A DNA stretch of 64,000 nt, taken from Lactobacillus kimbladii (GTDB lineage Bacteria; Bacillota; Bacilli; Lactobacillales; Lactobacillaceae). The DNA is taken from NCBI RefSeq assembly GCF_014323605.1, contig NZ_SCMB01000002.1, positions 310,001-374,000 on the forward strand. Direction: 5' to 3'. A model generated the notes under the pieces. That model saw nothing but the letters and a program-made list of their open reading frames with translations. It was not told the origin of the DNA and did no database searches. The position numbers and the translations under genes were made by a program. Below, in pieces: positions 13,089 to 49,346 of this stretch; the first letter of the stretch is position 1, and each line of letters starts with the position of its first letter.

Positions 13089-13673
13089 ATGAGCGGTGAT
13101 GTTGAACAAAGAATCTTATTAGCTTTTTCACAATTATTAATTCACAATGGCTATCAAAGAACCACTACTAAAAAAATTGCCCAAGTTGCTCGAGTTAATG
13201 AAAGTACCTTGTTTAGGCATTTTAAAGATAAACACGGCATTTTACAGCAGCTTATATCTGAATATCAAAATGATATTAAACTGATCGGCAAAAACTATCA
13301 ATTAGTTGGCGATTTAGATAAGGATATTATGAACTTTTCTGTTATCTTCCAAAACTTCATAAAACAACATTTAGCACTATTTTTAACAGGTATTCGTGAA
13401 TCTCAAAATTTGCCGGAACTGCAAACAGTGATAAAAAAACTACTTGATTTACTCAGAGAAGTTTTAACTGAAGAGTTTGAGCAAATGCAGAAGAAAGGAG
13501 AAATTGCTAAAGATATAGATAAAAAGGTTGAGATTGACAACTTAGTTTTACTCAATTTAGGTCAAGCTATCATGCAGCATTCTTTTCCTAATTCTGTTTT
13601 TCAAACTCAGTCAAACGCTTTTGTGCAAAATAATATTCGCACCTATGCTCACCATTTAAAGCCTGGAAATTAA
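13089..13673 (+). CDS. TetR-family transcriptional regulator
   Basis: A 194-residue protein with the TetR DNA-binding helices at about residues 20-50 (TTKKIAQVARVNESTLFRHF) and a helical ligand-binding domain after it. TetR proteins usually repress a neighbouring exporter gene. The nearest candidates are the small membrane frame just upstream and the CPBP gene; no intact exporter is adjacent. GGTGGG serves as RBS. A strong terminator follows. Confidence 0.88.
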   Translation: MSGDVEQRILLAFSQLLIHNGYQRTTTKKIAQVARVNESTLFRHFKDKHGILQQLISEYQNDIKLIGKNYQLVGDLDKDIMNFSVIFQNFIKQHLALFLTGIRESQNLPELQTVIKKLLDLLREVLTEEFEQMQKKGEIAKDIDKKVEIDNLVLLNLGQAIMQHSFPNSVFQTQSNAFVQNNIRTYAHHLKPGN

Positions 13674-13680
13674 CAAAACG

Positions 13681-13717
13681 GTCAGTTGAATTTATTGTCC
13701 AACTGACTGTTTTTTTT
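13681..13717. terminator. Terminator of tetR, facing gntR
   Basis: Arms GTCAGTTG and CAACTGAC are perfect, followed by an eight-T run. It lies 8 bp after the TetR stop and also separates it from the convergent GntR gene. Confidence 0.88.
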
Positions 13718-13743
13718 ATAATGAAAAATTTGCAAGTATATGA

Positions 13744-14502
13744 TCACTTTTTGTTATTAAGATAAATATTGCTGTCATTTTTGGAGTCGATAGTATAAAC
13801 CATTTTATCTCCTCTTACCACATAATGTGAAAACTCTAGTGGTTGATCAAATTGATTATAAACGATCTTGTTCACATCAAATAGTGGCACTACATTTGTT
13901 AATGCCAATAATCTAGCTTGCTCACTGCTGGGTAAGATGGTACTAATTTCACGATATGAACTTGCTAAAGTTTCATGATACTTATCTGCTAGGTATTGGT
14001 ATAGTGAAGTGTCTTCATGAATATTTGTGAGCAAATCAGGAAAACGTTCACCTGATAACCACGCCTCATCAATTGCCATCGGCACTTTTCCTGTTTGGGA
14101 TATTCTTTTAATGTAGACTAAATCTGCTTGTTCAGGCAATTGTAAAATCTTAGCAATTTGAGCATTTTGTAATATTTCTCTTCTTAAAATGACCTTTTTA
14201 TTTGTCTTAGATCGCGACTCAGCAAATTCAGAAAATCCTTCAATTTGTTCCAGCCTCCCCGTCAACTTTTTGACATTAACATAGGAGCCTTTACCCTGGA
14301 TAGTAACTACCAGTCCTTCATCAGTCAGTAACTTCAGAGCTTTACGCACTGTTATTCTGCTAACCTGATATTTTTGACATAAATATTGTTCACTTGGCAA
14401 TTTTTCGTCAGTTTTTAAGATGTTTTGCTGAATCTTTTGTTTAATATCTAAGTAAATTTTTTTGTAAAGTGGTACACCAGCAATTGTTTTGACAGAATTC
14501 AT
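13744..14502 (-). CDS. GntR/HutC-family regulator with UTRA domain; candidate regulator of the frl-opp operon
   Basis: A 252-residue regulator: winged helix in residues 10-75 (LPSEQYLCQKYQVSRITVRKAL) and a UTRA effector domain from about 95 to 240. I start at the ATG at 14502, with AAGGAAG 7 bp upstream; a GTG two codons earlier is less likely. UTRA regulators sense phosphorylated sugars or amino sugars. FrlR of Bacillus, which controls fructosamine use, belongs to this family, and the frl-opp operon starts 8 kb away on the same strand. The link is by analogy and proximity only. Confidence 0.85.
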   Translation of the reverse strand: MNSVKTIAGVPLYKKIYLDIKQKIQQNILKTDEKLPSEQYLCQKYQVSRITVRKALKLLTDEGLVVTIQGKGSYVNVKKLTGRLEQIEGFSEFAESRSKTNKKVILRREILQNAQIAKILQLPEQADLVYIKRISQTGKVPMAIDEAWLSGERFPDLLTNIHEDTSLYQYLADKYHETLASSYREISTILPSSEQARLLALTNVVPLFDVNKIVYNQFDQPLEFSHYVVRGDKMVYTIDSKNDSNIYLNNKK

Positions 14503-14726
14503 TATCACACTTCCTTAATCATTCAATATTACTAAATAAAAATAGAAATAACAAACTCAAAGATTAGTATAACAGTCATTTAAGATTAAACCTGTATGAA
14601 AAGTTTGGGCGATTATAGTAATTAAATAACTCTAAAATTATTTTAAATGCTGTAATATTGACTTAGAGCCTAAGCTGTATATTTTTTTACCAGAATTTTT
14701 TATGAATAAGTGGCTCATTCACAACA

Positions 14727-14765: not shown

Positions 14766-15299
14766 TTATTTCAAGGATCTTTGATATTTTCGTAACTTCT
14801 TTAAAGCCCATTCATAATGACTGCTAGTATTTGCAATGAAGTAAGTACCCAATGCATTATTACCAGTCCAAGGAAAAACATTCTTTTGAAAGAGTTGCTC
14901 TTCCGTATAGGTATCAAGCAAAGCCATAGTTTGTTTATGACTATTCGCCAGCATTTTTTCTGCTTCTGCAAGTGGCGTAGATTGGTGCTTTTGCCAAAAT
15001 TCTTGATTCATTTCACCATAATTACGCCAATTATACCCTTCAGGCAAAAATTCTTTGTTTTCACCGGATTGATTGCTTTTAACCCACTCTAGCAACAATT
15101 TTTGCCATTCATATAAATGGATCAAAACATCGCGTACATTATGATCTCTCTTCCAATGGGCTTCTTTTAGTTTACTCGTATCAAAATTGAAACTGCCAGT
15201 GCGAGCATCCTCTGGCAACTTAGCGATTAAATCAACTATCTTCTGGTATGACGAATTACTTGCATCAACTATTTCTTGCTTGGTTTTAGGACGTGGCAT
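14766..15299 (-). CDS. ClbS/DfsB family four-helix protein (DUF1706)
   Basis: The 177-residue protein is typical of the ClbS/DfsB family: an all-helical DinB-like bundle with the conserved W..D.NVRDVLIHLYEW segment near residues 49-65 and an NTSSHYEWA segment near 155-163. ClbS inactivates colibactin in E. coli, but most members in Firmicutes have no assigned substrate. It lies 62 bp downstream of oppF on the same strand and may be read through from that operon. No function can be claimed. Confidence 0.8.
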   Translation of the reverse strand: MPRPKTKQEIVDASNSSYQKIVDLIAKLPEDARTGSFNFDTSKLKEAHWKRDHNVRDVLIHLYEWQKLLLEWVKSNQSGENKEFLPEGYNWRNYGEMNQEFWQKHQSTPLAEAEKMLANSHKQTMALLDTYTEEQLFQKNVFPWTGNNALGTYFIANTSSHYEWALKKLRKYQRSLK

Positions 15300-15361: not shown

Positions 15362-16264
15362 TTACTTAGTCCACGACCCATCGTCTATTGCATAGTGACC
15401 ATTGCCTAAATCTGCCATTTCTTTATTTTCATATTGTTGTCTAAATGCATGATAATTTGATAACTTTTTATTTTGTTCTGCTATTGGATTAGTAGTGGGG
15501 ATAGCGGTTAACAAACTTTTTGTATAAGGATGCACAGGATCGTCAAAAATTGCTTCTGTTGGCCCAATCTCGACAATATGTCCCAAATGAATTACTCCTA
15601 TATGACTTGAAATATGTTTGACCATTGCCAAGTCATGGGCAATAAAGAGCATGGCACTGCCACTTTCTCTTTGTATTCTTTGAAGAAGATTAACAACTTG
15701 AGCTTGTACTGAAACATCTAGGGCAGAAATAGCTTCATCTGCAATAATAAGTCTGGGATGCATGATAACTACTCTGGCAATACCAACTCTTTGTCTTTGT
15801 CCACCTGAAAGTTCTTGCGGGTAGCGGTTAACAAATGATGAGTCAAGACCAACTATTTTTAACATTTCAATAACTTTTTGCAGTTTTTCATCCTTAGTTA
15901 ATTTAGGATAATGAATATCAAGACCCAGCTTGACTATGTCACCAACTTTTTTACGAGGATTTAGTGAAGACATAGGATCTTGAAAAATCATCTGCATGTC
16001 TTTACGCAACTTAGCAGTCTGCTTTTTACTTAACTGACCTGCTATTTGTTCACCTTCAAAAATCACCTCACCAGCAGTAGGCCAATAAAGACGAATAATA
16101 GAGCGGCCAATAGTGGTCTTTCCACTTCCTGACTCACCTACCAGACCAAAAGTTTCACCATTAGTAATGTTAAAGGAAACATCATCTACCGCTTTAACTA
16201 TTTTTTTATTTGCAACTGGAAAATATTGCTTTAAATGATGAACTTCAAGAATATTTTTAGTCAT
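15362..16264 (-). CDS. oppF: Oligopeptide ABC importer ATPase OppF
   Basis: A 300-residue ATPase with Walker A GESGSGKT (43-50), signature LSGGQ (152-156), Walker B IIADEA (173-178) and the C-terminal oligopeptide-transporter extension with [14 protein letters not shown]. It pairs with OppD to power peptide uptake through OppBC. It ends the operon frlB-frlD-oppABCDF and follows oppD by 3 bp. In this setting the imported peptide is plausibly glycated. Confidence 0.92.
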
Positions 16265-16267
16265 TGC

Positions 16268-17332
16268 TTATGATGCCCCCTTCATTTTTAAAATTCTCTT
16301 TTGCAAAACTGCTGGAATTGGTACTTTGGGAGCTCTTTTATCTAAGAGCCAAGTTGCAGCATAATGGTGGTCATTAATTTTAAACATTGGCGGTTGTTTT
16401 TTAAAATCAATGTTTAAGGCATACTTATTTCTGGGAGCAAAAGCATCTCCAACAATCGGTTGTGTTAAGTCTGGAATCGTTCCGGCAATAGTCGGTAATT
16501 CGTCAACTTTCTCATTGATATCAGGTACTGATTCAAGCAGACCCCAAGTATATGGGTGACGAGGTTCAAAAAAGATATCTTGGCTCGTTCCAGTCTCAAC
16601 TATTTTTCCAGCATACATGACGTTCACATATGTTGCAATATTGGCAACCACCCCTAAATTATGGGTGATAAAAATAACAGATAGTTTCCTGCTCTTTTGT
16701 ATATCTTTAATCAGGTTCAAAATTTTAGCCTGAATAGTAACATCCAAACCCGTAGTTGGTTCATCACAGATCAGTAAACTGGGATTCCCGGCCAACGCAA
16801 TGGCGATAACAATTCTCTGTCTCATTCCTCCAGAAAGTTGATGTGGATATTGGTTCTGAACAACCTTCATGTTTTGAATGCCAACGGTTTCAATTAAATT
16901 AAGCACCCGTTCGTTGATTTGATCCTTGTTCATCTCAGGATGAGAAGCCTTTACTGCCTCAGCGATTTGCTTATTAATTTTCATGGTTGGATCGAGAGAA
17001 GTCATTGGGTCTTGAAAAACCATTGCTATTTCTTTGCCCTTAATACGATTTTGCATAATCTTAGGACTAATTTTTAATAAATTAACTGTTTGTGGACCAT
17101 TTTCAGTCTGGTAAGTGAAATTGATCTCACCGGATTTAATTATTTGATTGGCTTCTTTTTCGCCCATGATTGGCTTTACACTAGCTGACTTGCCACAACC
17201 GGATTCACCAACTAAAGCAACTGTTTCACCCTTTTTTACCTGATAACTTATTCCTCTAACAGCTTGCACTTCTCCGTGATCGGTATGATAGGCTACTTGT
17301 AAATTTTTTATTTCTAAAACTGTTTCGGTCAT
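16268..17332 (-). CDS. oppD: Oligopeptide ABC importer ATPase OppD
   Basis: A 354-residue ATPase with Walker A GESGCGKS (42-49), signature LSGGM (166-170) and Walker B ICDEP (188-192). The C-terminal OppD/F extension (RHPYTWGLLESVPDI onward) is present. A large insertion between Walker A and the Q-loop (residues 55-95) is normal for OppD. It forms a heterodimer with OppF. The gene lies 8 bp after oppC in the same transcript. Confidence 0.92.
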   Translation of the reverse strand: MTETVLEIKNLQVAYHTDHGEVQAVRGISYQVKKGETVALVGESGCGKSASVKPIMGEKEANQIIKSGEINFTYQTENGPQTVNLLKISPKIMQNRIKGKEIAMVFQDPMTSLDPTMKINKQIAEAVKASHPEMNKDQINERVLNLIETVGIQNMKVVQNQYPHQLSGGMRQRIVIAIALAGNPSLLICDEPTTGLDVTIQAKILNLIKDIQKSRKLSVIFITHNLGVVANIATYVNVMYAGKIVETGTSQDIFFEPRHPYTWGLLESVPDINEKVDELPTIAGTIPDLTQPIVGDAFAPRNKYALNIDFKKQPPMFKINDHHYAATWLLDKRAPKVPIPAVLQKRILKMKGAS

Positions 17333-17340
17333 AATCTTAC

Positions 17341-18249
17341 CTAACTTCCTTCAATAGCATCCCGTAAGCCATCCGCAATAATATTAAAACTCAGCATAAT
17401 TAGTGCTAAAAACAATACGGGAAAAATGACCATGTATGGGTAAACGATAGCCTGGGTATAACCATCATTAATCATTGTTCCTAATGAAGCTAATGGTGCC
17501 GGAACACCTAAACCGATAAAGGCTAAGAATGCTTCCAAAAAAATTGCGTTCGGAATAGATAACATAAATGTGGTAATTATTTGTCCTAATGTATTAGGCA
17601 AAATTTGAGAGAAAATAATTTTAATATCAGATTCTCCCATTGTCTTTGCTGATAAAACATACTCGCTGGTTTTTAGTTCCAACACCTGTGCGCGAACTAT
17701 TCTACTCATATTAATCCAGCCGACAATCATCATCGCAGTAATTATGCTTACTAGACCTGGCTTCATGACCAGAACAAGCAAAGTAACAATAATGATCATA
17801 GGAATAGTACTAAGAATTTCTGTTATTCTTTGCATGAATAAATCAATTTTGCCACCAAAATATCCTGAAATCAGGCCATAACTAGTACCAATAACCAGAT
17901 CAATTGCCATTGCCACCAGAGCAACCCTTAGTGAAACTGAAGTACCAGCAGCAACTCTTACAAAAATATCTCTGCCTAAGTTGTCTGTTCCAAACCAATG
18001 ACCATTAACTCCAGGAGCTAAATTAGACTGGTTAGGATACGGTGTAGTGGGTGAGTATTGACTAAGGTAAGGCGCCAGAATGGCTATTAAAGCAATAATA
18101 ATTAAAACAACTGCGCTAATCACCGCACCTTTATTTCTTAAAAAGCGATGCCAAACCAACTGCCCATATGAATAAGATTTACCAGAATAATGGTCAACTG
18201 TTTCAGATTTATGGGCAAATTCAAAATCATTATTTTCTATATTAGTCAT
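17341..18249 (-). CDS. oppC: Oligopeptide ABC importer permease OppC
   Basis: A 302-residue permease with an N-terminal cytoplasmic stretch, a first span at about residues 38-60, the OppC N-terminal domain (HWFGTDNLGRDIF), and a five-span BPD_transp_1 domain holding the EAA loop (AKTMGESDIKIIFSQILPN) that contacts OppD/F. It works with OppB as the membrane channel. It follows oppB by 2 bp. Confidence 0.92.
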   Translation of the reverse strand: MTNIENNDFEFAHKSETVDHYSGKSYSYGQLVWHRFLRNKGAVISAVVLIIIALIAILAPYLSQYSPTTPYPNQSNLAPGVNGHWFGTDNLGRDIFVRVAAGTSVSLRVALVAMAIDLVIGTSYGLISGYFGGKIDLFMQRITEILSTIPMIIIVTLLVLVMKPGLVSIITAMMIVGWINMSRIVRAQVLELKTSEYVLSAKTMGESDIKIIFSQILPNTLGQIITTFMLSIPNAIFLEAFLAFIGLGVPAPLASLGTMINDGYTQAIVYPYMVIFPVLFLALIMLSFNIIADGLRDAIEGS

Positions 18250-18251
18250 AA

Positions 18252-19184
18252 TTATTTGCCCTCATCTAATCTAATACGCGGATCTATTAACCCGTAAAGA
18301 ATATCAACTATTAACATAATACTAATAAAAAGCACTGCATAAAAGAAAGTTATACCTAAGACTACATTGTAGTCATTAGCTTGTATAGCACTGATATACA
18401 ATGTTCCCAAGCCTGGAATAGCAAAAGCTTTTTCAATTACCATACTCCCGGCAATTAGGTCAATCATCAGTGGTGCTAATACAGTAATAACTGAAATTAA
18501 AGTGTTTCTGATAACATGGTGTCCGATCAACTGGAACTTTTTAATTCCTTTTGAATCCGCTAAACGATAATAATCAGAATTCATAATATCAATCATGTCA
18601 TTTCTAACATATCGTTCAATACTTGCCATAGTAAAAGTACTCAATGCTATTGTGGGCAGAATACTTGAAACAAAAGGCTGACTTGGTTGGTACGTTCCTG
18701 GAAAGACCATTAGTTTATAAGAAAATATAATTGACACGATCAATGCTACTACAAAGTTAGGAAGACTTATTCCCAAAACAGAAATGCCAGTCATTAAGTT
18801 ATCCCAAATTGTGCCTTTTTTGATTGCTGCCAAAATTCCCATCAGAAAGCCTAAAACTGAACCTAGTACAGTAGCCTGTAAACCTATCTGGAGTGAAATG
18901 GTAAAATGCTGCAAAATCATTGTAGTAACCGGCGTATTAACTTGAACGGTATACGAAACACCGAAATCGCCAGATAACATATTTTTCAAGTAATTAAGAA
19001 ACTGCAATGGCACTGGACCGTCTAAACCATATTTATGGTAAAGTGCCGCTATTTGAGCATGTGACATTTTTTCATCATTAAATGGCGAACCAGGCATTGC
19101 CTTTTCCATAATAAAAAGAATCAAAGTAATTAAAAATAATGTAATCACTGCGATTAATATTCTTTTTAAGACATACTTTTTCAA
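18252..19184 (-). CDS. oppB: Oligopeptide ABC importer permease OppB
   Basis: A 310-residue permease. It opens with MKKYVLKRILIAVITLFLIT, the usual OppB first span, then a periplasmic-side segment and a BPD_transp_1 domain with the EAA loop (LADSKGIKKFQLIGHHVIRN). It is separated from oppA by 77 bp holding a hairpin that probably lowers permease transcript relative to the binding protein. Confidence 0.92.
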   Translation of the reverse strand: MKKYVLKRILIAVITLFLITLILFIMEKAMPGSPFNDEKMSHAQIAALYHKYGLDGPVPLQFLNYLKNMLSGDFGVSYTVQVNTPVTTMILQHFTISLQIGLQATVLGSVLGFLMGILAAIKKGTIWDNLMTGISVLGISLPNFVVALIVSIIFSYKLMVFPGTYQPSQPFVSSILPTIALSTFTMASIERYVRNDMIDIMNSDYYRLADSKGIKKFQLIGHHVIRNTLISVITVLAPLMIDLIAGSMVIEKAFAIPGLGTLYISAIQANDYNVVLGITFFYAVLFISIMLIVDILYGLIDPRIRLDEGK

Positions 19185-19217
19185 GTTTTTCCCTCCAATC
19201 TTCCTAAATAAGCAAAC

Positions 19218-19242
19218 AGAGCTGAGATTGTATCCCAGCTCT
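19218..19242 (-). terminator. Intra-operon hairpin between oppA and oppB
   Basis: AGAGCTG and CAGCTCT pair perfectly, with a further GAT/ATC inner stem. No long T-run follows on the minus strand, so it is more likely a partial terminator or RNA-stabilising element that makes oppA more abundant than oppBCDF. Confidence 0.6.
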
Positions 19243-19261
19243 ATTAATACTTTTAACGAAA

Positions 19262-20881
19262 TTATTTAATTGAAGCATATTTGAAGAAGAATGGTACACC
19301 TGCAATATGCATCGGTAAATCTTTAATATTAGATCTTTCCAAAACTGGTGCACCAATCTGATATAGCGGTGGGCAAGAAGCACTGTCAATTAGGATATTG
19401 TTTGCCTTAAGAAGCAATTTGTATCTCTTAGCTTGATCAGTTGTTTGATCAGATTGAGCCATTAACTTATCAAATTCTGAATTTGCCCAGCGGCCGTAAT
19501 TGCTGTCGTTCTTAGATTGATACATACTCAAGATCGCTGTTGGATCAGCATAGTCTGGTCCCCAACGAGTTAAAGTAGCATCATAAGTAGCTTTTGACAT
19601 CTTATCAGTTCTAGTCTTCTTTGCTACTTGCTGCAGTGTCACTTTCATGCCAGGAAGGTGTTTTTCAACTTGAGCCTTGATATACGCAGCTACGTTAGCA
19701 TATGAAGGATCACTGTCATCATAAAGCAAGGTAAATGAACGCAAGTTAGTTGCTTTTTTTGCCTTATTCCAATACTTTTTAGCTTGAGCTGGTGAATACT
19801 CGTAAAGATTAGTAGTTGATTCATCTGCAAAATCTTTGCCTGTTGTCGGATTCTTAACCAAATCTTTCATAACCATAGAATGAGAAGGAATTGAACCATC
19901 TTTTAGGATGTGAGTTGTTATTTCTTTACGGTTAATACTGCAAGAAATTGCCTTACGCAGATCAGCATTATCTAATCCCGGTTTTTTCAGATTAAACATA
20001 ATGTACTGTGTAAAATTACCAACATCATTGACAAAGTTCTTATCTTTTCGATATTTAGAAACAAGCTGACCACTTAAGTGAACATAGTCTGCACTGCCAT
20101 TTTCGAATGCAATAGCTGCCTTTTCTGGGTCTGTAATAATATCAAGCTTAACATTCTTAATTTTGACATTTTTGGCATCCCAATATTTAGGATTTTTAAC
20201 TAACTGGATAGTGTTATCGCCTAATTTCCAATCCTTGATTTGGTATGGACCAGAATAAATTAAATGACTGGAATCTTGTGCAAATTTTTTACCAGTTTTT
20301 TGGAAATATTTCTGATTGACAGGAGCAAAATCACTGAATGCCAGCAACTTGTTCATGTAAGGTACAACATGATCCAATTGCACTACTAGAGTTTTAGGGC
20401 CTGTAGCCTTAACGCCCAATGACTTGACCGGCTTCTTGCCAGCTACAATGTCATTAGCATTTTTAATGCCAGCCGCACCTGGTTGGAAGTTAAAGGCTGA
20501 AGCAATTTTGGGATCAGACAACCGCCGCCAGGCAAAAACAAAATCATTTGCTGTTACAGGATCACCATTTGACCAGTTGGCGTTTTTACGAATAGTAAAA
20601 GTCTTGGTGAGTCCATGATTACTCGTTTTAACTTTAGAGGCCAATGCCAATTGGGGCTTATCGTGGGCATCAATAGTGTACAAGCCTTCGGTTGTGTTAG
20701 CTACAACTGTTGAAGATGTGTTTTGATACGCTAAAATCGGGTCAAGAGAGTCAACCGTTGCATTTTGAACAACAGTAATTTTATCTTGATTTTTTGTACC
20801 AGAACTGGAATTTTTCTGGCATCCTGTTATTAACAAGCCTACACATGCAATTGCAGTTGCAAACAATGCACTTTTTTTCAT
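19262..20881 (-). CDS. oppA: Oligopeptide-binding lipoprotein OppA
   Basis: A 539-residue SBP_bac_5 binding protein. The signal peptide ends in the lipobox LITGC, so Cys20 or 21 is lipidated and anchors it outside the membrane. I start at the ATG at 20881 (MKKSALF); a GTG three codons earlier sits on top of the RBS. It lies 15 bp after frlD, placing a peptide receptor inside the fructosamine operon. It could bind glycated peptides, but ordinary peptides cannot be excluded from sequence. Confidence 0.9.
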   Translation of the reverse strand: MKKSALFATAIACVGLLITGCQKNSSSGTKNQDKITVVQNATVDSLDPILAYQNTSSTVVANTTEGLYTIDAHDKPQLALASKVKTSNHGLTKTFTIRKNANWSNGDPVTANDFVFAWRRLSDPKIASAFNFQPGAAGIKNANDIVAGKKPVKSLGVKATGPKTLVVQLDHVVPYMNKLLAFSDFAPVNQKYFQKTGKKFAQDSSHLIYSGPYQIKDWKLGDNTIQLVKNPKYWDAKNVKIKNVKLDIITDPEKAAIAFENGSADYVHLSGQLVSKYRKDKNFVNDVGNFTQYIMFNLKKPGLDNADLRKAISCSINRKEITTHILKDGSIPSHSMVMKDLVKNPTTGKDFADESTTNLYEYSPAQAKKYWNKAKKATNLRSFTLLYDDSDPSYANVAAYIKAQVEKHLPGMKVTLQQVAKKTRTDKMSKATYDATLTRWGPDYADPTAILSMYQSKNDSNYGRWANSEFDKLMAQSDQTTDQAKRYKLLLKANNILIDSASCPPLYQIGAPVLERSNIKDLPMHIAGVPFFFKYASIK

Positions 20882-20896
20882 AAATATCACTCTTTT

Positions 20897-21712
20897 CTAA
20901 AAGGATTTCTGATGACCAAAACCACCAGATAGTTGGCAAGTAGCTGCAGCATTTTTACTAGCTGCTAAAGCAGCTTCTTGCAGATTGTTTTTATTTAAGT
21001 AAGAAACTAGAAAACCAGCAATAAAGCTGTCACCTGCACCCATAGTGTCAACGACTTTTACTTTTTGTGGTTTTTGATAATAGGATTTCTGTGAAGTTAA
21101 CAAGAATGCAGAATTTGCACCTCTTGTGATGACTATGACTTCCGGTCCCAAAGTTAAATATTTTTTAGCAAATTCTTCCACTTGTTCATCAGACATCTCT
21201 GAACCTGAAAAGAAAGCATAATCTACAAACGGTAAAACACGTTTAAAATAACTTTCATTGCGAGAATCTGAAAAATCAAATGATACTTTGGTAATATGAT
21301 GTAATTCATCAAGATAATTTTCAATTCCCGAATCAATTCCAACATGAACAACATCAAATTTTTTTATTTCCGCAAAATCTGTTGGGGTAAGCCTTAAGGA
21401 TAACAAATGCATTACTGAATTTTTAGGACCAGGAGCAAAAGTTCTATCACCTTCATCTGTGAGAATAACTCGAGGCTGTGCTGTGGGAGCATAGACCTTA
21501 CGACAATTAATAAGTTCTACATTTTCTTCTGTTAAAGATTCTTTAATATGCTGTGCTCGATCGTCATCTCCAAACATTCCCAGATAAGCTGAAACATCAG
21601 CTCCGGCTTTTTTGGCATCAACTGCTACATTGACACAATTTCCGCCTGGAAAAAATATCTTTTGCTTGATGTATGTATCAGCTACATTGTCACCAACTGC
21701 AATTATTTTCAT
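20897..21712 (-). CDS. frlD: FrlD-like PfkB-family kinase (fructoselysine/fructosamine 6-kinase)
   Basis: A 271-residue ribokinase-family enzyme. The substrate region GGNCVNVAVDAKKAG lies near residues 23-37 and the catalytic DTMGAGDSFIAGF near 222-234, with Asp228 as base. The overall pattern (short protein, GDNVADTY start, FDFSD segment) is close to E. coli and Bacillus FrlD, which phosphorylates fructoselysine at O6. It lies 14 bp after the FrlB-type deglycase gene, its natural partner. A general sugar kinase role is less likely given this neighbour. Confidence 0.85.
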   Translation of the reverse strand: MKIIAVGDNVADTYIKQKIFFPGGNCVNVAVDAKKAGADVSAYLGMFGDDDRAQHIKESLTEENVELINCRKVYAPTAQPRVILTDEGDRTFAPGPKNSVMHLLSLRLTPTDFAEIKKFDVVHVGIDSGIENYLDELHHITKVSFDFSDSRNESYFKRVLPFVDYAFFSGSEMSDEQVEEFAKKYLTLGPEVIVITRGANSAFLLTSQKSYYQKPQKVKVVDTMGAGDSFIAGFLVSYLNKNNLQEAALAASKNAAATCQLSGGFGHQKSF

Positions 21713-21726
21713 GATTTACAGCCTTT

Positions 21727-22704
21727 TTAATAATCCAGATGTCCCATATAACGACGGACATCTAGTGAGTGTCCTCTTTCATAAGCAAATCCTTCGGCTA
21801 ATTGACGGAAAGCAACTCCTGAAAGAATCTGAGAATAGTATTCTTTAAAGTCGTCATCTACTTCATGCATATCAAAGTCAGCGTCGTCAATCACGTAAAC
21901 TTTTTGACTATGCTTTTTAGCAAAATCGATTACACGTTGATCCATTTTTCTGGTAACGCCTAATCCTTTGCAAATGATAAATGGCACATCAAAATCTGTT
22001 ACTTCAAAAGGACCGTGGAAATATTCAGCAGAATTGATATATCCACTATGAATCCATTGCATTTCCTGAAGCCAACAAGCTGAAAATGAATATGTTTCTC
22101 CAGTATTAATACCTGATCCTACAGCATAAATTAATTTTTCGCGTTTTAATTCACTGGTCCATTTCTTTGCAGTTTCTCCAAATTGTTTTCTTACCCTGTC
22201 AGCCATAGTTTCTAAGCTATCCAAAGCTTTCAGGCCTTTTTCAAATTTGTTATCACCAGTTATGGACTTCAATAGACTAAATATGAAACCATACAAAACC
22301 CCATTATTTAAATCAGAAGCATCGGTACCTTTGCCCCAACTGTAGTGCAAAGTGAAATTGGAATTCTTTTCTAAGTCAGAACCTGCTGTATAGGTAATAC
22401 CTACTGTTAGAGCACCTTTACTCTTGGCAAAATTAACTGCCTCATTTGTTTCTGGCGTACTACCTGAATGTGAACAAGAAACTACTAAACTATGATTGCC
22501 CAAATCATGAGGATTACGTGTTGTAAATTCCCGTGCTGGTAAAATTGTGGCTGGAATATCACATTCGCGGTTGAAAATATATTCAGCTGGTTGCATAAAA
22601 GCCATCGATCCTCCACAAGCTACAAAATAGACATGATTAATGCCATCAATCTTTTCTGCAGCGGCAAGAGCATTCTTAATTTCTTGTTGATATTCTTTTT
22701 TCAT
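21727..22704 (-). CDS. frlB: FrlB-like SIS-domain fructosamine-6-phosphate deglycase
   Basis: A 325-residue protein with two SIS domains (about 20-165 and 190-310). Marks of the FrlB group are the serine-rich SCSHSGSTPETNEA loop (residues 77-90), EYFHGPFEV in the second domain and the C-terminal RRYMGHLDY. It cleaves fructosyl-amino acid 6-phosphate into glucose 6-phosphate and free amino acid. I start at the ATG at 22704, with GAGAGG 6 bp upstream. It is the first gene of the frlB-frlD-oppABCDF operon. Confidence 0.85.
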   Translation of the reverse strand: MKKEYQQEIKNALAAAEKIDGINHVYFVACGGSMAFMQPAEYIFNRECDIPATILPAREFTTRNPHDLGNHSLVVSCSHSGSTPETNEAVNFAKSKGALTVGITYTAGSDLEKNSNFTLHYSWGKGTDASDLNNGVLYGFIFSLLKSITGDNKFEKGLKALDSLETMADRVRKQFGETAKKWTSELKREKLIYAVGSGINTGETYSFSACWLQEMQWIHSGYINSAEYFHGPFEVTDFDVPFIICKGLGVTRKMDQRVIDFAKKHSQKVYVIDDADFDMHEVDDDFKEYYSQILSGVAFRQLAEGFAYERGHSLDVRRYMGHLDY

Positions 22705-22725
22705 TTTAAACCTCTCAATCATTCT

Positions 22726-22775
22726 TGTTATATGATGTTATATTATAAGATAATAGCTAATTTTTTATATGTCAA
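22726..22775 (-). promoter_or_regulatory. frlB promoter with tandem ATATAACA repeats
   Basis: On the minus strand TTGACA (22770-22775) is followed at 17 bp by TATCTT (22747-22752). Just downstream are two exact copies of ATATAACA with a 10-bp period (complements of 22736-22743 and 22726-22733), ending a few bases before the RBS. One helical turn between copies suggests an operator for a dimeric regulator; a similar GTATAACA occurs at 14567-14574 ahead of the GntR gene. Confidence 0.55.
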
Positions 22776-22880
22776 GCATTTTTCTTAAAATTATCTAATA
22801 AAAATAATTGACTAGTAAAATCAAATAAAAAAGTTTGTGAAATGGTATGAACCAATTGCCTGTGTATCAGAGCAAACAAA

Positions 22881-22913
22881 AAAAGCAATTCACAAACTCG
22901 TGAATTGCTTTTT
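22881..22913. terminator. Terminator of the glutamine-type ABC... upstream boundary of frl operon
   Basis: AAAAGCAATTCAC and GTGAATTGCTTTTT form a perfect 13-bp stem with T-runs on both strands. It ends the minus-strand ABC importer operon (22939-25807) and insulates it from the frl-opp operon. Confidence 0.9.
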
Positions 22914-43269: not shown

Positions 43270-43683
43270 TTAAAATTCTTCGTCATCAGCAGATGGTTCG
43301 ACATCCTGATAACGATAAATCCCAGTTTTACCAGCTTCCGTTATTCCAGAAAGCAGCTCTTCTTTCTCTAACTGACTGCGATTGATGAACAGTTCCAGCA
43401 ACATGGGAATATTAACACCCGTGATAATTTCCATTTCCGGATTGCTCTTTAGTAAGCTGACCAGCGTGTTAAAAGGAGTTCCTCCCTTTAGATCTGTTAA
43501 ACAAAAAACTGTTCCTTTTAGTTGGCTGATTTTTTCACTTATTTCAGACTTTAATTGTTCTAAAGATTCGCCCTCTTTGAAATTCACGGTTTGGCAATTT
43601 TCTTGTTTACCACAAATCATTTCTGCTGACTTTAATAATTCAGGTGCTGAATTACCATGTGTACAAATAATTACTCCAACCAT
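43270..43683 (-). CDS. PTS EIIA, mannose family (GfrA-like)
   Basis: A 137-residue EIIA-Man domain with the phosphorylated His9 in IICTHGNSAP. It is a free-standing subunit, the last gene of the operon EIIB-EIIC-EIID-SIS-SIS-EIIA. It relays phosphate from HPr to EIIB. Since the second mannose-family PTS at 50366-53283 has no EIIA, this one might serve both. Confidence 0.9.
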   Translation of the reverse strand: MVGVIICTHGNSAPELLKSAEMICGKQENCQTVNFKEGESLEQLKSEISEKISQLKGTVFCLTDLKGGTPFNTLVSLLKSNPEMEIITGVNIPMLLELFINRSQLEKEELLSGITEAGKTGIYRYQDVEPSADDEEF

Positions 43684-43698
43684 ATAATCACACTATAA

Positions 43699-44694
43699 TT
43701 AATAATCTAAACAGCGGTAGTAACGGCGAATATCCATCGGATGACGGTTAATATGTTCAATGTGAACGTCAATTCTGTTATTAATCGCATGGAAGACAAA
43801 CGGTGACAAGGTGCCACGATATTTTTCTGAAAAACCCGGCAGGTCATAGTCTTTAGAATCAATAATAGTATAGTTACCACAAATTTCTGGTAAAAATTTA
43901 GCAACACGTTCACTTAATGGCCGTTGACTGTCCTCACCAACATAGACAGTAACTGGAGTATCACGATCAACGATTTCAAACATCCCATGGAAAAATTCTG
44001 CTGCTTCCACTGCGCGCGTTCTAATCCAGTGTTGTTCTTCCCAATAGCACATTGCATATGAATAAGTTGCACCCCATTGATTGCCGGCACCGACAAAATA
44101 GTGAATTTCATCGTCATGGTGTTTCTCGGCAAATTTTTGGGCAAAATCATCCGCATTTTCTTCAATATCAGCAATGTCTTTTGCAAAATGTTGATCCATT
44201 TCTTGATAAAACTCATCATAATCTGGAAATTCACCGTTCAAATACATTAAGCGGTCTCCGACCATAAAGAATTTTAACTGTTCATTTTCAGGATAAGAAA
44301 TACAATACGTTAGCATTGAAGCTAATTTAGCGTGTGGGTCGTCCATAAAACCTAAAATGATTGCACCAACTTGGTTTAAGTTTTTAACTGCATCAACCAT
44401 TTCTTTGGTATTTCCAGTAACTGAGGAAATTACCACCAAGGTCTTGTCGGTAATACGTTTATTACCAGTTACATTATATTCAGCGGCATTTTGATAAAAA
44501 GTTTCTAAAGCACTTTTTTCTTTCATGTGGATATTAGCCTGCATTCCCGAAGCATAGGTTCCACCGATTCCCAGCCAGCAAATATTGGTTATGCCTTTTT
44601 TAAATAGTGGATCAATCACATCGTTAATTTGGCTCCGTAGTTTAAGGGCGCCAGTCATACTATCAATTAATTTTTGCTTGTTAAATTTACGCAT
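43699..44694 (-). CDS. FrlB/GfrF-like SIS-domain fructosamine-6-phosphate deglycase
   Basis: A 331-residue double-SIS protein. FrlB-group marks are the serine loop ISSVTGNTKEMVDAV, AAEFFHGMFEIVD in the second domain and the C-terminal RRYYRCLDY, nearly the same ending as the FrlB-like protein at 21727. It would cleave fructoselysine 6-phosphate or a related Amadori phosphate to glucose 6-phosphate and amino acid. It sits between EIIA and a second, different SIS gene, the same pairing as Salmonella gfrE/gfrF. Confidence 0.82.
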   Translation of the reverse strand: MRKFNKQKLIDSMTGALKLRSQINDVIDPLFKKGITNICWLGIGGTYASGMQANIHMKEKSALETFYQNAAEYNVTGNKRITDKTLVVISSVTGNTKEMVDAVKNLNQVGAIILGFMDDPHAKLASMLTYCISYPENEQLKFFMVGDRLMYLNGEFPDYDEFYQEMDQHFAKDIADIEENADDFAQKFAEKHHDDEIHYFVGAGNQWGATYSYAMCYWEEQHWIRTRAVEAAEFFHGMFEIVDRDTPVTVYVGEDSQRPLSERVAKFLPEICGNYTIIDSKDYDLPGFSEKYRGTLSPFVFHAINNRIDVHIEHINRHPMDIRRYYRCLDY

Positions 44695-44720
44695 TTTTCT
44701 TCCTCTTTTTTAAAATTATT

Positions 44721-45788
44721 CTATATTTTTGAAGCTGTTATCTGATCAAAATCCGGGTACGCAGAATGTTGCAAATCTATCTTCTTCACTTGTGATAACT
44801 TATAGGCTAGCAAGTGAACCGGTACTGTCATAAATAAAGAAGCCAAAAGTTCACTTGTTGTAATACCTAAGCTGAGGTCGTCAGCTGTTGCATTTTCATC
44901 TTTACCTGCATATATTGTGTAGACATTTTTAACATGCTTATTTAAGAACCGCTTTAAAAGTTCCATTCTGTCGTGCAATTTTCCCATAGGGTCTAAACAA
45001 ATGATAAAGTCATCCGGGTTCAACCCCAGATAAGGACCGTGCATGTATTCTTCCAGTTCTTTTCCCCAAGCACTAATACGGACTGCTTCAGTCGTCTTGG
45101 TTTCACCTTCGCGGCTGACACCATAAGCTGCACCGTAACCGATAAAAACTAATCTCTTCGCAGTAGCAAATTTACTAATGTTATTTTCAACCCAACTACT
45201 TGCGCGCTTAATTACTTCAGGCATCTTCTGAACTATATTTTTTATTTCAGCTAAAATTTGTGTAAATTTTACAGACGAAAGTTTGCCTGTTTTTTGTGCA
45301 ATTAACATTGATAATAACATTAAATCTAAAATTTCTACGCTATATCCGGCACTGACATATGGCATTTCTTCAATAGGCATTCCCATATCTAAAACGTGAT
45401 GACAAACTTTTCCAACTGGACTATCAAGTTCACTTGTTAAAGCAAAAACTGTATTACCGGCATCTTGTAATCGCTGAATAATTTTTACTACAGAATAGCT
45501 GTGACCGCCTTGAGATATCGCAATACATAAAGAATTTTGACTAACATGAAGCAAATAATTTTCAGCTATAGAAGGCTCTTCAATTTTTACTGGCATTTTT
45601 AAAATATTGCTCATGAATGGCAATGCACCATATGCAGCATTTGAACTAGAACCTGTTGCATAAATGACAATATTATCAACATTTTTATTTAACTGAGTCA
45701 GTTTATTGCTGAATAAATCAGAATAGTTTTGCAAAACCGCTTCATAGTATTTTGGTTCTAAGTGGACATAATCTTCTATACTTTTCAC
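44721..45788 (-). CDS. GfrE-like SIS-domain deglycase (GlmS C-terminal type)
   Basis: A 355-residue double-SIS protein closer to the GlmS isomerase half: IYATGSSSNAAYGALPF near residue 43, IAISQGGHSYSVV, and ELEEYMHGPYLGL in the second domain. It differs clearly from the neighbouring FrlB-type protein. In Salmonella GfrE cleaves glucoselysine 6-phosphate. The lack of a glutaminase domain excludes a normal GlmS. Substrate is inferred from context. Confidence 0.78.
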   Translation of the reverse strand: MKSIEDYVHLEPKYYEAVLQNYSDLFSNKLTQLNKNVDNIVIYATGSSSNAAYGALPFMSNILKMPVKIEEPSIAENYLLHVSQNSLCIAISQGGHSYSVVKIIQRLQDAGNTVFALTSELDSPVGKVCHHVLDMGMPIEEMPYVSAGYSVEILDLMLLSMLIAQKTGKLSSVKFTQILAEIKNIVQKMPEVIKRASSWVENNISKFATAKRLVFIGYGAAYGVSREGETKTTEAVRISAWGKELEEYMHGPYLGLNPDDFIICLDPMGKLHDRMELLKRFLNKHVKNVYTIYAGKDENATADDLSLGITTSELLASLFMTVPVHLLAYKLSQVKKIDLQHSAYPDFDQITASKI

Positions 45789-45803
45789 AAGAATCTCCTT
45801 TAG

Positions 45804-46628
45804 TTACTGACCCAGCAGTCCTGACCAGGCACCAAATATTCCGATTGCTGCTATCAGCAACAAAATATATTGTGATTTCCAGCCTTTTTTATCAAGCCAG
45901 AAAATAAAGAATGTGAACAATAGAGGTAAAATACCAGGAACAATGCCATCACAAATTTTTTGAACGGTAGTCGCTTCAGCACCACTACCAATTTTCAAAG
46001 GCATTTTCAAAGTTACCATGGTCGCAACCATAGCCCCGACAACAGCAAGTCCTAAAACTGAAGCGCCATAAGTTAGCTTATCCATTAAACCTGTCTTTTG
46101 CACTTTGTCGATAAAGGAGGAACCTATATTGTAGCCAATAAACAAACCGTAGTATCTAGTGATAATGGCCGGAATATTAAAGATTAGCAAGAACAAAATT
46201 GGTCCTAAAATATTACCTTGCATTGCAAGAGAAGTACCAATTCCTGTAGCAATAACCCTTAACGTACCCCAAAAGAATGAATCACCAATGCCACTCAAAG
46301 GTCCCATTAAAGCAACTTTAATGTTATTGATTGAAGCAGCATCAAAATCTGGATCAAGTTCGTTTTGCTCTTCCATTGCGATTGAAATACCTAAAGGAAA
46401 AGTACTTAGCCATGGCGTAACATTATAAAACTCAAGGTGTCGCTTATAAGCGTCCTTTAATTTTTCCTTGTTTTTACCATAGATCTTTCGTAAAGCCGGA
46501 ACCATAGAGTAGGCATAGCCAAGATTCATTTGGCGTTCATAATTCCAAGCCCATTCCATCGTAAAGGACCGCCAGAAAGTTTTCATTAAATCTTTTCTGG
46601 TGAGTAACTTAGAATTCTTCATCTTCAT
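45804..46628 (-). CDS. PTS EIID, mannose family (GfrD-like)
   Basis: A 274-residue EIID subunit with the family start LTRKDLMKTFWRSF, the RQMNLGYAYSMVPAL segment and GPLSGIGDSFFWGTL. It forms the membrane complex with EIIC. It overlaps the EIIC stop by 20 bp and uses GGAGGC inside that gene as RBS. Confidence 0.92.
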   Translation of the reverse strand: MKMKNSKLLTRKDLMKTFWRSFTMEWAWNYERQMNLGYAYSMVPALRKIYGKNKEKLKDAYKRHLEFYNVTPWLSTFPLGISIAMEEQNELDPDFDAASINNIKVALMGPLSGIGDSFFWGTLRVIATGIGTSLAMQGNILGPILFLLIFNIPAIITRYYGLFIGYNIGSSFIDKVQKTGLMDKLTYGASVLGLAVVGAMVATMVTLKMPLKIGSGAEATTVQKICDGIVPGILPLLFTFFIFWLDKKGWKSQYILLLIAAIGIFGAWSGLLGQ

Positions 46629-47439
46629 AATCTATGCCTCCATCATCTGCATCTTTTTCACTTGTGTTATTAGAATTAGCAGCAGTATTTACTAACGGTT
46701 GACCTTTAAAAGCGGAATAGCCAGTTAGAATAAGGGCCAAACATGCGCCGAAAATAGCTACCCCAGTTACTGATACTTTGAGATAGACTGCCAAGGCAAA
46801 ACCAATAATAAAGAAAGTGACATTATTCTTGTTGACCATCATCTTAAGCAGCAGAGCAAAACCATATGCTGGTAGAAGCCCTGTGGCAATTCCCAAGCCA
46901 TTAATAATAAATTGGGGAATCACTGCTAAAATTGCTTTAATTACCGGGCTGCCTAGGACATAGGAAATACCAACTACTAAACCTATTGGCAAGTTAACCG
47001 AGAAAAAGCCGCCCAGTACGTTCATCCGACTTACACCACTGCCATCAGCTTCTTCGGCATATTTATCTGCGCGGTGAACGAAGAACGGTAATATGAAAAT
47101 AAAGCACAAATTTTTGATTACCAAAACAAGGGATGCAATTGGAATTCCCAAGGTTAAAGCAACCGCAGTACTCTTGCCCGCTCCGATGGCGAAAGCAGTT
47201 CCCAAAACACTACCGGAGATTATTTCGGGGGGAATTGCCGCACCAATAGAAAATGAACCAACAAAGGCTAACTCCAAAGTTGCCCCCATAATAATTCCCT
47301 GATGCAGGTTACCCAACACTAAGCCAGTTAGCGTACAGGTTACAAGTGGCCTTGACAGCATGGATGAACCAACAAAGTATTCACCGTTACCCATCATCGC
47401 AATTAAAGCCAAAATAATTGCGGTTAAATATACATTCAT
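46609..47439 (-). CDS. PTS EIIC, mannose family (GfrC-like)
   Basis: A 276-residue EIIC-Sor/Man permease with family blocks GNGEYFVGSSMLSRPLVTC and GAAIPPEIISGSVLGTAFA. It has about eight spans and a long acidic tail (DADDGGIDYEDEEF) that ends inside the EIID start region. It is the sugar-specific channel; the substrate is suggested by the two deglycase genes of the operon. Confidence 0.92.
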   Translation of the reverse strand: MNVYLTAIILALIAMMGNGEYFVGSSMLSRPLVTCTLTGLVLGNLHQGIIMGATLELAFVGSFSIGAAIPPEIISGSVLGTAFAIGAGKSTAVALTLGIPIASLVLVIKNLCFIFILPFFVHRADKYAEEADGSGVSRMNVLGGFFSVNLPIGLVVGISYVLGSPVIKAILAVIPQFIINGLGIATGLLPAYGFALLLKMMVNKNNVTFFIIGFALAVYLKVSVTGVAIFGACLALILTGYSAFKGQPLVNTAANSNNTSEKDADDGGIDYEDEEF

Positions 47440-47452
47440 TATTTACCTCCAA

Positions 47453-47923
47453 TCATTTTTTATGAAATTCTTGTTTCTCATCATTTGGCACTTGCTGAAT
47501 CCAGACATCTACTCCCTTTTGCTGCAACTGAGCTAATTCATTAGCCTCCTCCGCAGTTAAATTAATAGTTTTGGAATAGTTTGTTGTTCCTTCTCTAGGC
47601 TTAGTGCCACCAAGATTAAGGCTCGTTATTTTGTCTCCAGTTCCTTTAATTAATTCAACGGCATCAGCAACCGATTCCACTACGATTAGCATCTTATATT
47701 TATCGGTTACCCCAGAATTAATTGCTTTAATACTGTCTGCTACAGACTTCATTACCAGTTTAGACTTTTCCGGTTTTGCCAATCTGATGGCCGATTTGCG
47801 AAAATCATCATGGGCAACATCATCATTTACTACAAATATCGTATTAACGTCTAAACTATTAAACCAGGAAACAGCTACTTGCCCATGGACCAAGCGATGG
47901 TCAACTCGCACTAGTTTAATCAT
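47453..47923 (-). CDS. PTS EIIB, mannose family (GfrB-like)
   Basis: A 156-residue EIIB subunit with the active-site His13 in VDHRLVHGQVAVSW. I start at the ATG at 47923, 8 bp after GGAGG; an upstream ATG at 47938 overlaps that RBS and the regulator's stop. It transfers phosphate from EIIA to the incoming sugar at EIIC/D. Confidence 0.92.
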   Translation of the reverse strand: MIKLVRVDHRLVHGQVAVSWFNSLDVNTIFVVNDDVAHDDFRKSAIRLAKPEKSKLVMKSVADSIKAINSGVTDKYKMLIVVESVADAVELIKGTGDKITSLNLGGTKPREGTTNYSKTINLTAEEANELAQLQQKGVDVWIQQVPNDEKQEFHKK

Positions 47924-47937
47924 TTTTCTTTCCTCCA

Positions 47938-48627
47938 TTAACTAAAATCTAATGAGTACCTTGTTTTTACAGCATCCTGCAGTCTGTACTCTAGGGCTAC
48001 AATTTTACCTTGTCTAGTTGAAAACAGGTTCGTAATTTTAAACACAGGATCTTTTTCTTGGATATGAAATTGCTTACTAATTTCTTCTGTTGCTTTAATT
48101 AACTGAAAGTCTTGGTAAACATCATCTAGCTTCTGTGTACCGGTATTGACCGCTTCAATAATTGACATTACTTTTAAGCAATTTGAATCAAATCCCGGAA
48201 AGTTATCTAAAAGTAAAAGTAAATGTTCACAGGTAATTTCACCCTTAATTTCCGCTGTAAAAGAAATATCATATAATAACTCCTGTGAGCTCACATTAAA
48301 AACTGCAGCATAATATGAACCAACTAGCCTTAGATAAGTATCCTTAAATTTTATTTTGTCCGATGACTCCAAATATAAGGGCCTAATAATGCCTGTCATT
48401 TCCAAAATATTTTGCTTAGAAATTATTGGAGCAACAAATAAACCACTTCCTTTTTTACGCACAACTTTATTTTCAGCTACTAATTTATTAACAGCTTTTC
48501 TAATTGTGGTTCTACTAACATCATATCTTTTTTGTAATTCAACCTCGTTGGGTAAAGTACTACCTGGTGGATAACCACCATTAACAATTCTTTTATCCAA
48601 ATCGGCATATACTTCTTTAAAAAGCAT
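47938..48627 (-). CDS. GntR/HutC regulator of the gfr-like operon (second)
   Basis: A 229-residue regulator with a winged helix (LPNEVELQKRYDVSRTTIRKA, about 25-45) and a UTRA domain. It lies between another GntR gene (2 bp upstream) and EIIB. Two regulators ahead of one PTS suggests separate sensing of two substrate phosphates, or a heteromeric repressor. This is inference. Confidence 0.87.
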   Translation of the reverse strand: MLFKEVYADLDKRIVNGGYPPGSTLPNEVELQKRYDVSRTTIRKAVNKLVAENKVVRKKGSGLFVAPIISKQNILEMTGIIRPLYLESSDKIKFKDTYLRLVGSYYAAVFNVSSQELLYDISFTAEIKGEITCEHLLLLLDNFPGFDSNCLKVMSIIEAVNTGTQKLDDVYQDFQLIKATEEISKQFHIQEKDPVFKITNLFSTRQGKIVALEYRLQDAVKTRYSLDFS

Positions 48628-48629
48628 AA

Positions 48630-49346
48630 TTATTCCTCTTGATAATCATAAATATTATTAGCATTAAAATGATATTTAAATTTATTTCCTACTAAATATT
48701 GAGTTGTACTCTCAATTGGTAAGTCATCGTCTTGATAATTGAAACTGTTTACTTGATAAAGAGGAGTGCCTTTTTTGACTTTCAACAGACTGCTTATTTT
48801 TTTATCGGCCAAAAAACACGAGATACTTTCTTTACCATAAGTTGGCCTCACATGATACTCCTTCTCCAGAACCTCATAAAGTGATTTATTAGTAAAATCA
48901 ATCTTTTCCATTCTGCTAAAATTTTTTTGACTAAAATACGTTATCTCATATGTTAGGGCAATATCTTTAACAAACCGAACTCGCTCAATTTTAATAACTG
49001 GCCCGTTTGAATTAAAAAAATCATCTAATCTCTTGGGCATTGTTTCGATAGTTGTTGCCAGATGTTTGATGCTAACTGTCTTATTTTTAAATTCAGTAGT
49101 CATTGATTCCATTCCCAGCATATTAATGTCAATTTTATTGTTAGAAATTATTCCTGCTCGTTCTTTTATCAGTATTTGTCCCCCATTTTTGAGCCCATCC
49201 AATGCATGTTTCACTGCATTACGACTAACTTGCAATTTCTCAGAAATTTCGCGTTGTGAGGGTAAATCTTTCACTTTTTTAAAGTGGATTAAAAATTCTA
49301 AATACTCTTGAACTTGAACCGCAGCAGTTCTCTCTTTGAATTCCAT
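48630..49346 (-). CDS. GntR/HutC regulator of the gfr-like operon (first)
   Basis: A 238-residue regulator: winged helix at about 25-70 (LPSQREISEKLQVSRNAVKHA) and a UTRA-type effector domain from about 85. It is clearly diverged from the second regulator. As first gene of the operon it probably represses its own promoter; a pair of inverted TCTGGTATCA boxes lies right upstream. Confidence 0.87.
   Translation of the reverse strand: MEFKERTAAVQVQEYLEFLIHFKKVKDLPSQREISEKLQVSRNAVKHALDGLKNGGQILIKERAGIISNNKIDINMLGMESMTTEFKNKTVSIKHLATTIETMPKRLDDFFNSNGPVIKIERVRFVKDIALTYEITYFSQKNFSRMEKIDFTNKSLYEVLEKEYHVRPTYGKESISCFLADKKISSLLKVKKGTPLYQVNSFNYQDDDLPIESTTQYLVGNKFKYHFNANNIYDYQEE

What the first reader, a model, noticed from the sequence alone, without database searches (positions are those of the whole stretch)
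15362..22704. Fructosamine deglycase and kinase fused into an oligopeptide importer operon
FrlB- and FrlD-type genes are followed at 14-15 bp by oppA and the whole oppBCDF set, all on one strand with no terminator between frlB and oppA. Known frl systems use sugar-type or amino-acid-type importers (established for E. coli and Bacillus). A full Opp system suggests uptake of glycated peptides, which peptidases and then FrlD/FrlB would process. Specific substrate is inference.
Basis: partly seen in the sequence, partly recalled or inferred. Interest (0 to 1): 0.75.

Follow-up and report, generated by a model that had tools for sequence, protein, structure and literature searches.

The report
Peptide-type importer in fructosamine operon
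In bee-gut lactobacilli and some other bacteria, the genes that break down sugar-modified (glycated) amino acids share an operon with their own peptide-type importer, which suggests that these bacteria take up glycated peptides or fructosyl amino acids through it.

Summary
In detail: frlB, frlD and oppABCDF lie head to tail on the minus strand (22704-15362; gaps 14, 15, 77, 2, 8, 3 bp), behind a conserved promoter and repeat. It is no chance neighbourhood. Of the 80 best FrlB loci from 84,980 genomes, 13 carry FrlD plus Opp, 49 FrlD plus a sugar ABC, 15 a mannose PTS without FrlD, 3 none of these: Opp fills the importer slot. The OppA is a distinct subfamily: 15 frl-linked OppAs (Lactobacillaceae, Sporolactobacillus, Clostridia, Actinomycetota) form one group against 44 others, support 100/98. 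Starting from OppA instead of FrlB, 8 of 140 genomes had this type and all 8 are frlB-frlD-oppABCDF loci. The genome has another complete Opp. This is very probably a dedicated Opp-type fructosamine importer, a new variant beside the known permease, PTS and sugar-ABC importers. Glycated peptide (favoured) or free fructosyl amino acid as substrate is not settled: the operon has no peptidase, and the fold also serves opine binders such as MoaA.

The parts
22880..22913 (-). terminator-like hairpin that ends the upstream amino-acid ABC operon
   Evidence: 15 pairs followed by T run; a hairpin with T run stands at the same place in all 5 Lactobacillus loci aligned
22724..22775 (-). promoter TTGACA-17-TATCTT and direct repeat ATATAACA-TC-ATATAACA, probable operator
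   Evidence: 10 of 12 promoter matches; -35, -10 and repeat invariant in 5 Lactobacillus loci; repeat element 20 of 21 identical in Weissella bombi and G137; exact site unique in the genome
21727..22704 (-). frlB, fructosamine-6-phosphate deglycase (SIS family)
20897..21712 (-). frlD, fructosamine 6-kinase (PfkB family)
19262..20881 (-). oppA, substrate-binding lipoprotein of the frl-linked subfamily
19215..19245 (-). hairpin between oppA and oppB, possible attenuator or mRNA end stabiliser
   Evidence: folding z -3.88 here, -4.30, -2.93 and -2.91 in three other Lactobacillus loci, not significant in Weissella (-1.46) and L067 (-0.24)
18252..19184 (-). oppB, permease (Opp3B best)
17341..18249 (-). 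oppC, permease (Opp3C best)
16268..17332 (-). oppD, ATPase
15362..16264 (-). oppF, ATPase
14766..15299 (-). DUF1706 gene, found only in part of the relatives; probably not essential to the system
   Evidence: Pfam; present in L062-L066, not found in G098, Weissella or the other frl-opp loci
13744..14508 (-). GntR/UTRA regulator, probable FrlR-type regulator of the operon
   Evidence: Pfam; relatives of it near most frl-opp loci; that it binds the repeat was not shown

Best explanation
frlB-frlD-oppABCDF is one regulated transcription unit in which the Opp proteins are the dedicated importer of the fructosamine substrate. OppA captures a short fructosylated peptide outside the cell, OppBCDF bring it in with ATP, FrlD phosphorylates the sugar at C6, and FrlB splits the product into glucose 6-phosphate and the free amine (a peptide, or an amino acid if general peptidases act first). 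A GntR/UTRA regulator probably controls the promoter before frlB. Shown by computation: gene content, spacing, conserved promoter element, linkage across phyla, a specialised OppA subfamily, and alternation with the other importer types. Inferred: both enzyme steps (from characterised relatives), regulation, co-transcription and the substrate. I put 0.88 on a dedicated fructosamine importer of either kind; the stated confidence is for the whole account with glycated peptides as main substrate.
Confidence: 0.52

Rival explanations
1. The Opp-type system is the dedicated importer, but of free fructosyl amino acids, which FrlD and FrlB process directly; no peptide is involved.
For: It stands in the slot where other loci have FrlONM-like sugar ABC genes, and FrlONM import fructosevaline (abstract of PMC12632257). 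No peptidase in the operon. The fold includes binders of agropinic and mannopinic acid, sugar-derived amino acid conjugates. Two honey papers report N-fructosyl Pro, Ile, Phe and others (passages). Frl-specific residues such as R439 (12 of 15, against 0 of 44) and M295 (13 of 15, against 0 of 44) hint at a changed ligand.
Against: Closest folds and sequences are peptide binders (28-34% identity, against 18-20% for the opine binders); simpler importers for free fructosamines exist.
Confidence: 0.35
2. An ordinary peptide Opp that happens to lie behind frlBD, or is co-regulated for nitrogen supply, with no part in fructosamine uptake.
For: All Opp parts look like oligopeptide transporters; the Asp of the peptide site is kept.
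Against: Conservation of the link over two phyla, one OppA subfamily, absence of another of the three importer types in the 13 Opp loci, and a second complete Opp in the genome.
Confidence: 0.07
3. The amino-acid ABC transporter upstream (25831-22939) is the real fructosamine importer and Opp serves something else.
For: It lies next to frlB in the window, L062-L066 and G098; some more distant FrlB-FrlD genes do sit with amino-acid ABC genes (L050, L052).
Against: A terminator-like site and the conserved promoter separate it from frlB. It was not found beside frlB in Weissella, L067, L108, L116, L135, L138 or L225-L230; in L079 amino-acid ABC genes belong to a second frl cluster. Its binding protein matches the one of L052 at 29% only.
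Confidence: 0.04

Closest known systems
Bacillus subtilis frlBONMD-frlP operon with repressor FrlR
   Same: FrlB deglycase (3eua is the closest solved relative; that it is the B. subtilis protein is recalled), FrlD kinase, ABC importer, GntR-type regulator
   Different: importer FrlONM-FrlP is a sugar-type ABC system (PMC12632257); here a full Opp set with an SBP_bac_5 protein
Escherichia coli frlABDR
   Same: kinase FrlD plus deglycase FrlB
   Different: uptake by the permease FrlA (passages of PMC12735817); substrate epsilon-fructoselysine
gfrABCDEF of Salmonella and Enterococcus faecium (mannose-family PTS)
   Same: SIS-type deglycase of glycated lysine
   Different: the PTS phosphorylates during uptake, no FrlD; a set of this look lies in this window at 43270-47938
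Opp/DppE peptide importers of Gram-positive bacteria (OppA, DppE, PrgZ)
   Different: frl-linked OppAs are a separate subfamily with own residues and are tied to frlBD
Agrobacterium MoaA, AgaA and AccA (opine binders)
   Same: same SBP fold with sugar-derived ligands such as mannopinic and agropinic acid

Membership tests
Frl fructosamine pathway (FrlD kinase + FrlB deglycase) | SIS-family FrlB related to characterised or solved deglycases | tested here: met
   E 3.4e-84 to 3eua; the Glu of EMQW and the His of YFHGP, catalytic by recall, are kept in the alignments to 3eua and 9otj
Frl fructosamine pathway (FrlD kinase + FrlB deglycase) | PfkB-family FrlD next to frlB | tested here: met
   Pfam PfkB, best NCBIfam model fructoselysine 6-kinase but under its cut-off (169 of 247 bits); 14 bp from frlB
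Frl fructosamine pathway (FrlD kinase + FrlB deglycase) | growth on fructosamines that depends on frlB and frlD | not testable with these tools
   needs cultures
FrlR-type (GntR/UTRA) control | linked GntR/UTRA regulator that binds the frl promoter | tested here: inconclusive
   gene and conserved repeat found; binding not testable; no close copy of the Weissella palindrome near the window's gntR
Opp/Dpp ABC importer | SBP_bac_5 lipoprotein, two permeases, two ATPases in one set | tested here: met
   Cys of the lipobox (LITGC, motif recalled) seen
Opp/Dpp ABC importer | import of peptides | not testable with these tools
   fold closest to peptide binders does not show the ligand
gfr mannose-PTS fructosamine systems | PTS subunits with the deglycase, no separate kinase | tested here: not met
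   no PTS hit within 8 kb and FrlD present in all 13 Opp loci
FrlONM sugar-type ABC fructosamine systems | SBP_bac_1 binding protein and sugar permeases beside frlB | tested here: not met
   no such hit within 8 kb in the 13 Opp loci; in the window the genes between frlB and oppF are only frlD and opp genes

The most novel reading that the evidence does not exclude
A specialised Opp whose OppA recognises the fructosyl-amine end of N-terminally glycated peptides, followed by FrlD and FrlB acting on the intact glycated peptide and so unblocking it for aminopeptidases: a bacterial salvage route for glycated peptides whose OppA arose once and is now found in Bacillota and Actinomycetota.
Probability: 0.3. 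Interest if true: 0.75.

Novelty: new variant of a known kind. Interest (0 to 1): 0.62.

Why it matters
Amadori compounds occur in heated food and honey, and part of them is bound in peptides; how bacteria take up the peptide-bound part is, as far as the papers searched here show, open. A dedicated importer in cultured bee-gut lactobacilli makes this testable with one deletion and one binding assay. It adds an importer type to a pathway known with a permease, a PTS and a sugar ABC system, and gives a marker (frl-type OppA) for finding users of glycated peptides or fructosyl amino acids in gut genomes.

Tried and rejected
Chance neighbourhood: rejected by conservation. Only Opp of the genome: rejected, a second complete set at C32. 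Operon reaching up into the amino-acid ABC genes: unlikely, terminator-like site and conserved promoter lie between. Peptidase in the operon: none; the widest uncovered stretch between frlB and oppF genes in the relatives is 315 bp (in L079, where opp is divergent, a longer gap separates a second frl cluster). Ten flanking genes or sugar-ABC genes were typed by Pfam: an HtrA-like protease (Trypsin_2, PDZ) lies just upstream of frlB in L116 only; flanks of the other loci were not all typed. Regulon beyond the operon: the exact repeat is unique in the genome; 8 further sites have 2 mismatches, against 3 hits for the reversed control pattern, and were not pursued. The window's repeat is not rarer than chance by itself at 3 mismatches (1 found, 0.69 expected); its weight comes from conservation. 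A palindrome CTTGTTATAACAAG before the divergent GntR gene in Weissella and G137 has no close copy near the window's gntR. Pocket geometry: no model coordinates reach the script box, so residue statements rest on an alignment to E. coli OppA and recalled contacts; the recalled contacts to the peptide carboxyl end (K307, H371, R413) are not kept in the window's OppA, but most other OppAs of the set lack them too. FrlB tree: Opp-linked FrlBs need 2 changes, 1 forced by starred branches, so one origin is allowed but not shown (L087, L120, L129, L130 and L139 of the 80 loci left out). OppA tree: 84 candidate ORFs, 23 copies or fragments dropped, 61 used; L231 and L232 were found later and are not in it. 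Rarity: a profile search of 398 genomes of the phylum at E <= 1e-150 found only the own genome (at most 3 candidates per genome were scored). Literature: ten searches of the open-access library, several with capped lists (28: 20 of 51; 31: 15 of 163; 65: 12 of 50; 66: 15 of 26; 86: 20 of 61), listed no paper whose title or abstract start ties fructosamine genes to Opp. Four papers that hold frlB together with such words were checked by passages (PMC10644037, PMC6560171, PMC5270733, PMC8856183): none links them. An earlier report, above all in a subscription journal, is not excluded.
Full report
What is there. On the minus strand seven genes lie head to tail: frlB (22704-21727), frlD (21712-20897), oppA (20881-19262), oppB (19184-18252), oppC (18249-17341), oppD (17332-16268) and oppF (16264-15362), with gaps of 14, 15, 77, 2, 8 and 3 bp. 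A DUF1706 gene and a GntR/UTRA regulator follow on the same strand. FrlB is an SIS protein whose best solved relative is 3eua, a putative fructose-aminoacid-6-phosphate deglycase (E 3.4e-84). FrlD is a PfkB kinase whose best NCBIfam model is fructoselysine 6-kinase (169 bits, under the cut-off of 247). The Opp proteins match Opp3B and Opp3C permeases, oligopeptide ATPases and SBP_bac_5. The genome is a bee-gut type Lactobacillus: FrlB is 96-99% identical in L. kullabergensis, L. huangpiensis, L. laiwuensis and strain W8174 and 81% in L. apis (that these are bee symbionts is recalled).

Transcription unit. A terminator-like site (22913-22880) ends the upstream amino-acid ABC operon; then comes a promoter-like TTGACA-17-TATCTT. 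In five Lactobacillus loci the -35, the -10 and the following repeat ATATAACA-TC-ATATAACA are invariant while the flanks drift. In Weissella bombi and G137, another genus, 20 of 21 bases of the repeat element stand before frlB. Between frlB, frlD and oppA only one weak stem was found. A hairpin between oppA and oppB folds better than shuffles in four Lactobacillus loci (z -3.88, -4.30, -2.93, -2.91), not significantly in Weissella (-1.46) or L067 (-0.24). It may give more binding protein than permease (inference).

Conservation. Of 397 Lactobacillaceae genomes 38 have a FrlB homologue at E <= 1e-30. Of 20 stretches fetched around 20 of the 54 listed matches, the three with FrlB of 58-76% identity (G098, G137, G267) carry frlB-frlD-opp; the other 17 (FrlB at most 48%) show no Opp gene. 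One scan of 84,980 genomes with a FrlB alignment gave 285 relatives, the best 80 of which were kept. A uniform classification within 8 kb gave 13 loci with FrlD and Opp, 49 with FrlD and a sugar-type ABC, 15 with a mannose PTS and no FrlD above the set score (L141 has two weak kinase hits farther off), 1 with FrlD and none of these importers (L104) and 2 at contig ends or without either (L087, L139). No locus had two of these three types; amino-acid ABC genes were not scored and lie near some loci (L062-L066, L079, L109). The sugar type was checked by Pfam in L113 and L069. So Opp takes the place of the importer, and the kinase is present with either ABC type and missing with the PTS, as expected if the PTS does the phosphorylation. 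The 13 Opp loci are six Lactobacillus, Weissella bombi, Sporolactobacillus nakayamae (Opp divergent from frlBD), three other Bacillota (L107, cut by the contig end, L108, L116) and two Actinomycetota MAGs (L135, L138).

A test that does not start from FrlB. A search with the Olsenella OppA in 140 genomes of its family found 8 OppAs at E <= 1e-90, the 7 others at 55-66% identity. Two are the known loci; the six new ones were fetched and all six read frlB-frlD-oppA-B-C-D-F-gntR: 8 of 8. The same test around Caproiciproducens (200 genomes) gave the known OppA and two of 36% identity with Opp genes but no frl genes. In all, 22 genomes with the linkage were seen, the window included; the widest uncovered stretch between neighbouring operon genes is 315 bp. 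In G137 oppB gives a tblastn hit but no intact ORF matched it. A strict profile search of 398 genomes of the phylum found only the own genome, so the system is rare.

A specialised OppA. In 301 Lactobacillaceae genomes 239 have an OppA-family match at E <= 1e-60; the four frl-linked ones are 64-100% identical to the window's, the others listed at most 42%. In nine frl-opp genomes the frl OppAs score 415-1185 bits with the Caproiciproducens OppA, two OppAs of G401 408 and 365, and the other paralogues at most 270. In a tree of 61 rows (23 copies or fragments of 84 candidates dropped) the 15 frl OppAs are one side of a branch with 100/98 support; the two OppAs of G401, alone on a 4.3-kb contig, are sister to them. 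The own genome has another complete Opp with three OppAs at C32.

Mechanism. The best-supported account is a dedicated Opp-type fructosamine importer that feeds FrlD (phosphorylation at C6) and FrlB (cleavage to glucose 6-phosphate and amine), under a GntR/UTRA regulator. I put 0.88 on a dedicated importer of either substrate. Kinship with peptide binders favours short glycated peptides. Against this stand the lack of a peptidase gene, the preference of the B. subtilis enzymes for alpha-glycated amino acids (introduction of PMC12632257), opine binders of the same fold, and free N-fructosyl amino acids in honey (passages of PMC12114437 and PMC11395089). N-terminally glycated peptides would suit both an alpha-type FrlB and a peptide-type OppA; this is the novel case.

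Known or new. Importers described for this pathway are FrlA and the mannose PTS (passages of PMC12735817) and sugar-type FrlONM (PMC12632257); for Intestinimonas the passages seen name an ABC transporter without its type (PMC4697335). Ten searches of the open-access library listed no paper that ties frl genes to Opp, and four candidates read by passages do not. Subscription papers are not excluded. I call it a new variant of a known kind.

Limits. All evidence is comparative. Residue roles are recalled. Labels of the FrlB tree were set by hand; the counts given here are those, where L106, L127, L131 and L132, 'other' in the tree, count as sugar type.

Noticed in passing
window 43270-49346: A second fructosamine-type set: mannose-family PTS genes, two SIS proteins (43699-44694, best solved relatives 8glr and 2a3n; 44721-45788, GlmS isomerase-like) and two GntR-type genes, looking like the gfr systems.
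   Followed up: partly
L065:11832-15360: L. apis has two oppA genes in tandem in the frl-opp operon, 84% and 74% identical to the window's; both fall in the frl OppA group.
   Followed up: partly
L034 about 13105-14000: In G137 no intact oppB ORF was matched although tblastn sees oppB there; assembly error or decay not told apart.
   Followed up: no
own genome G000:C34:58714-59879: An SBP_bac_5 gene appears in two pieces in adjacent ORFs.
   Followed up: no
L068:9786-9801 and L034:9240-9260: A palindrome CTTGTTATAACAAG stands before the divergent GntR gene in Weissella bombi and G137; its half ATAACAAG is shared with the repeat before frlB.
   Followed up: partly
L079:12218-17350: Sporolactobacillus nakayamae has a second FrlB-FrlD-GntR cluster with amino-acid type ABC genes right beside its frl-opp genes.
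   Followed up: no
window 14766-15299: A DUF1706 gene lies between oppF and gntR in L062-L066 and the window only; role in the system unknown.
   Followed up: no
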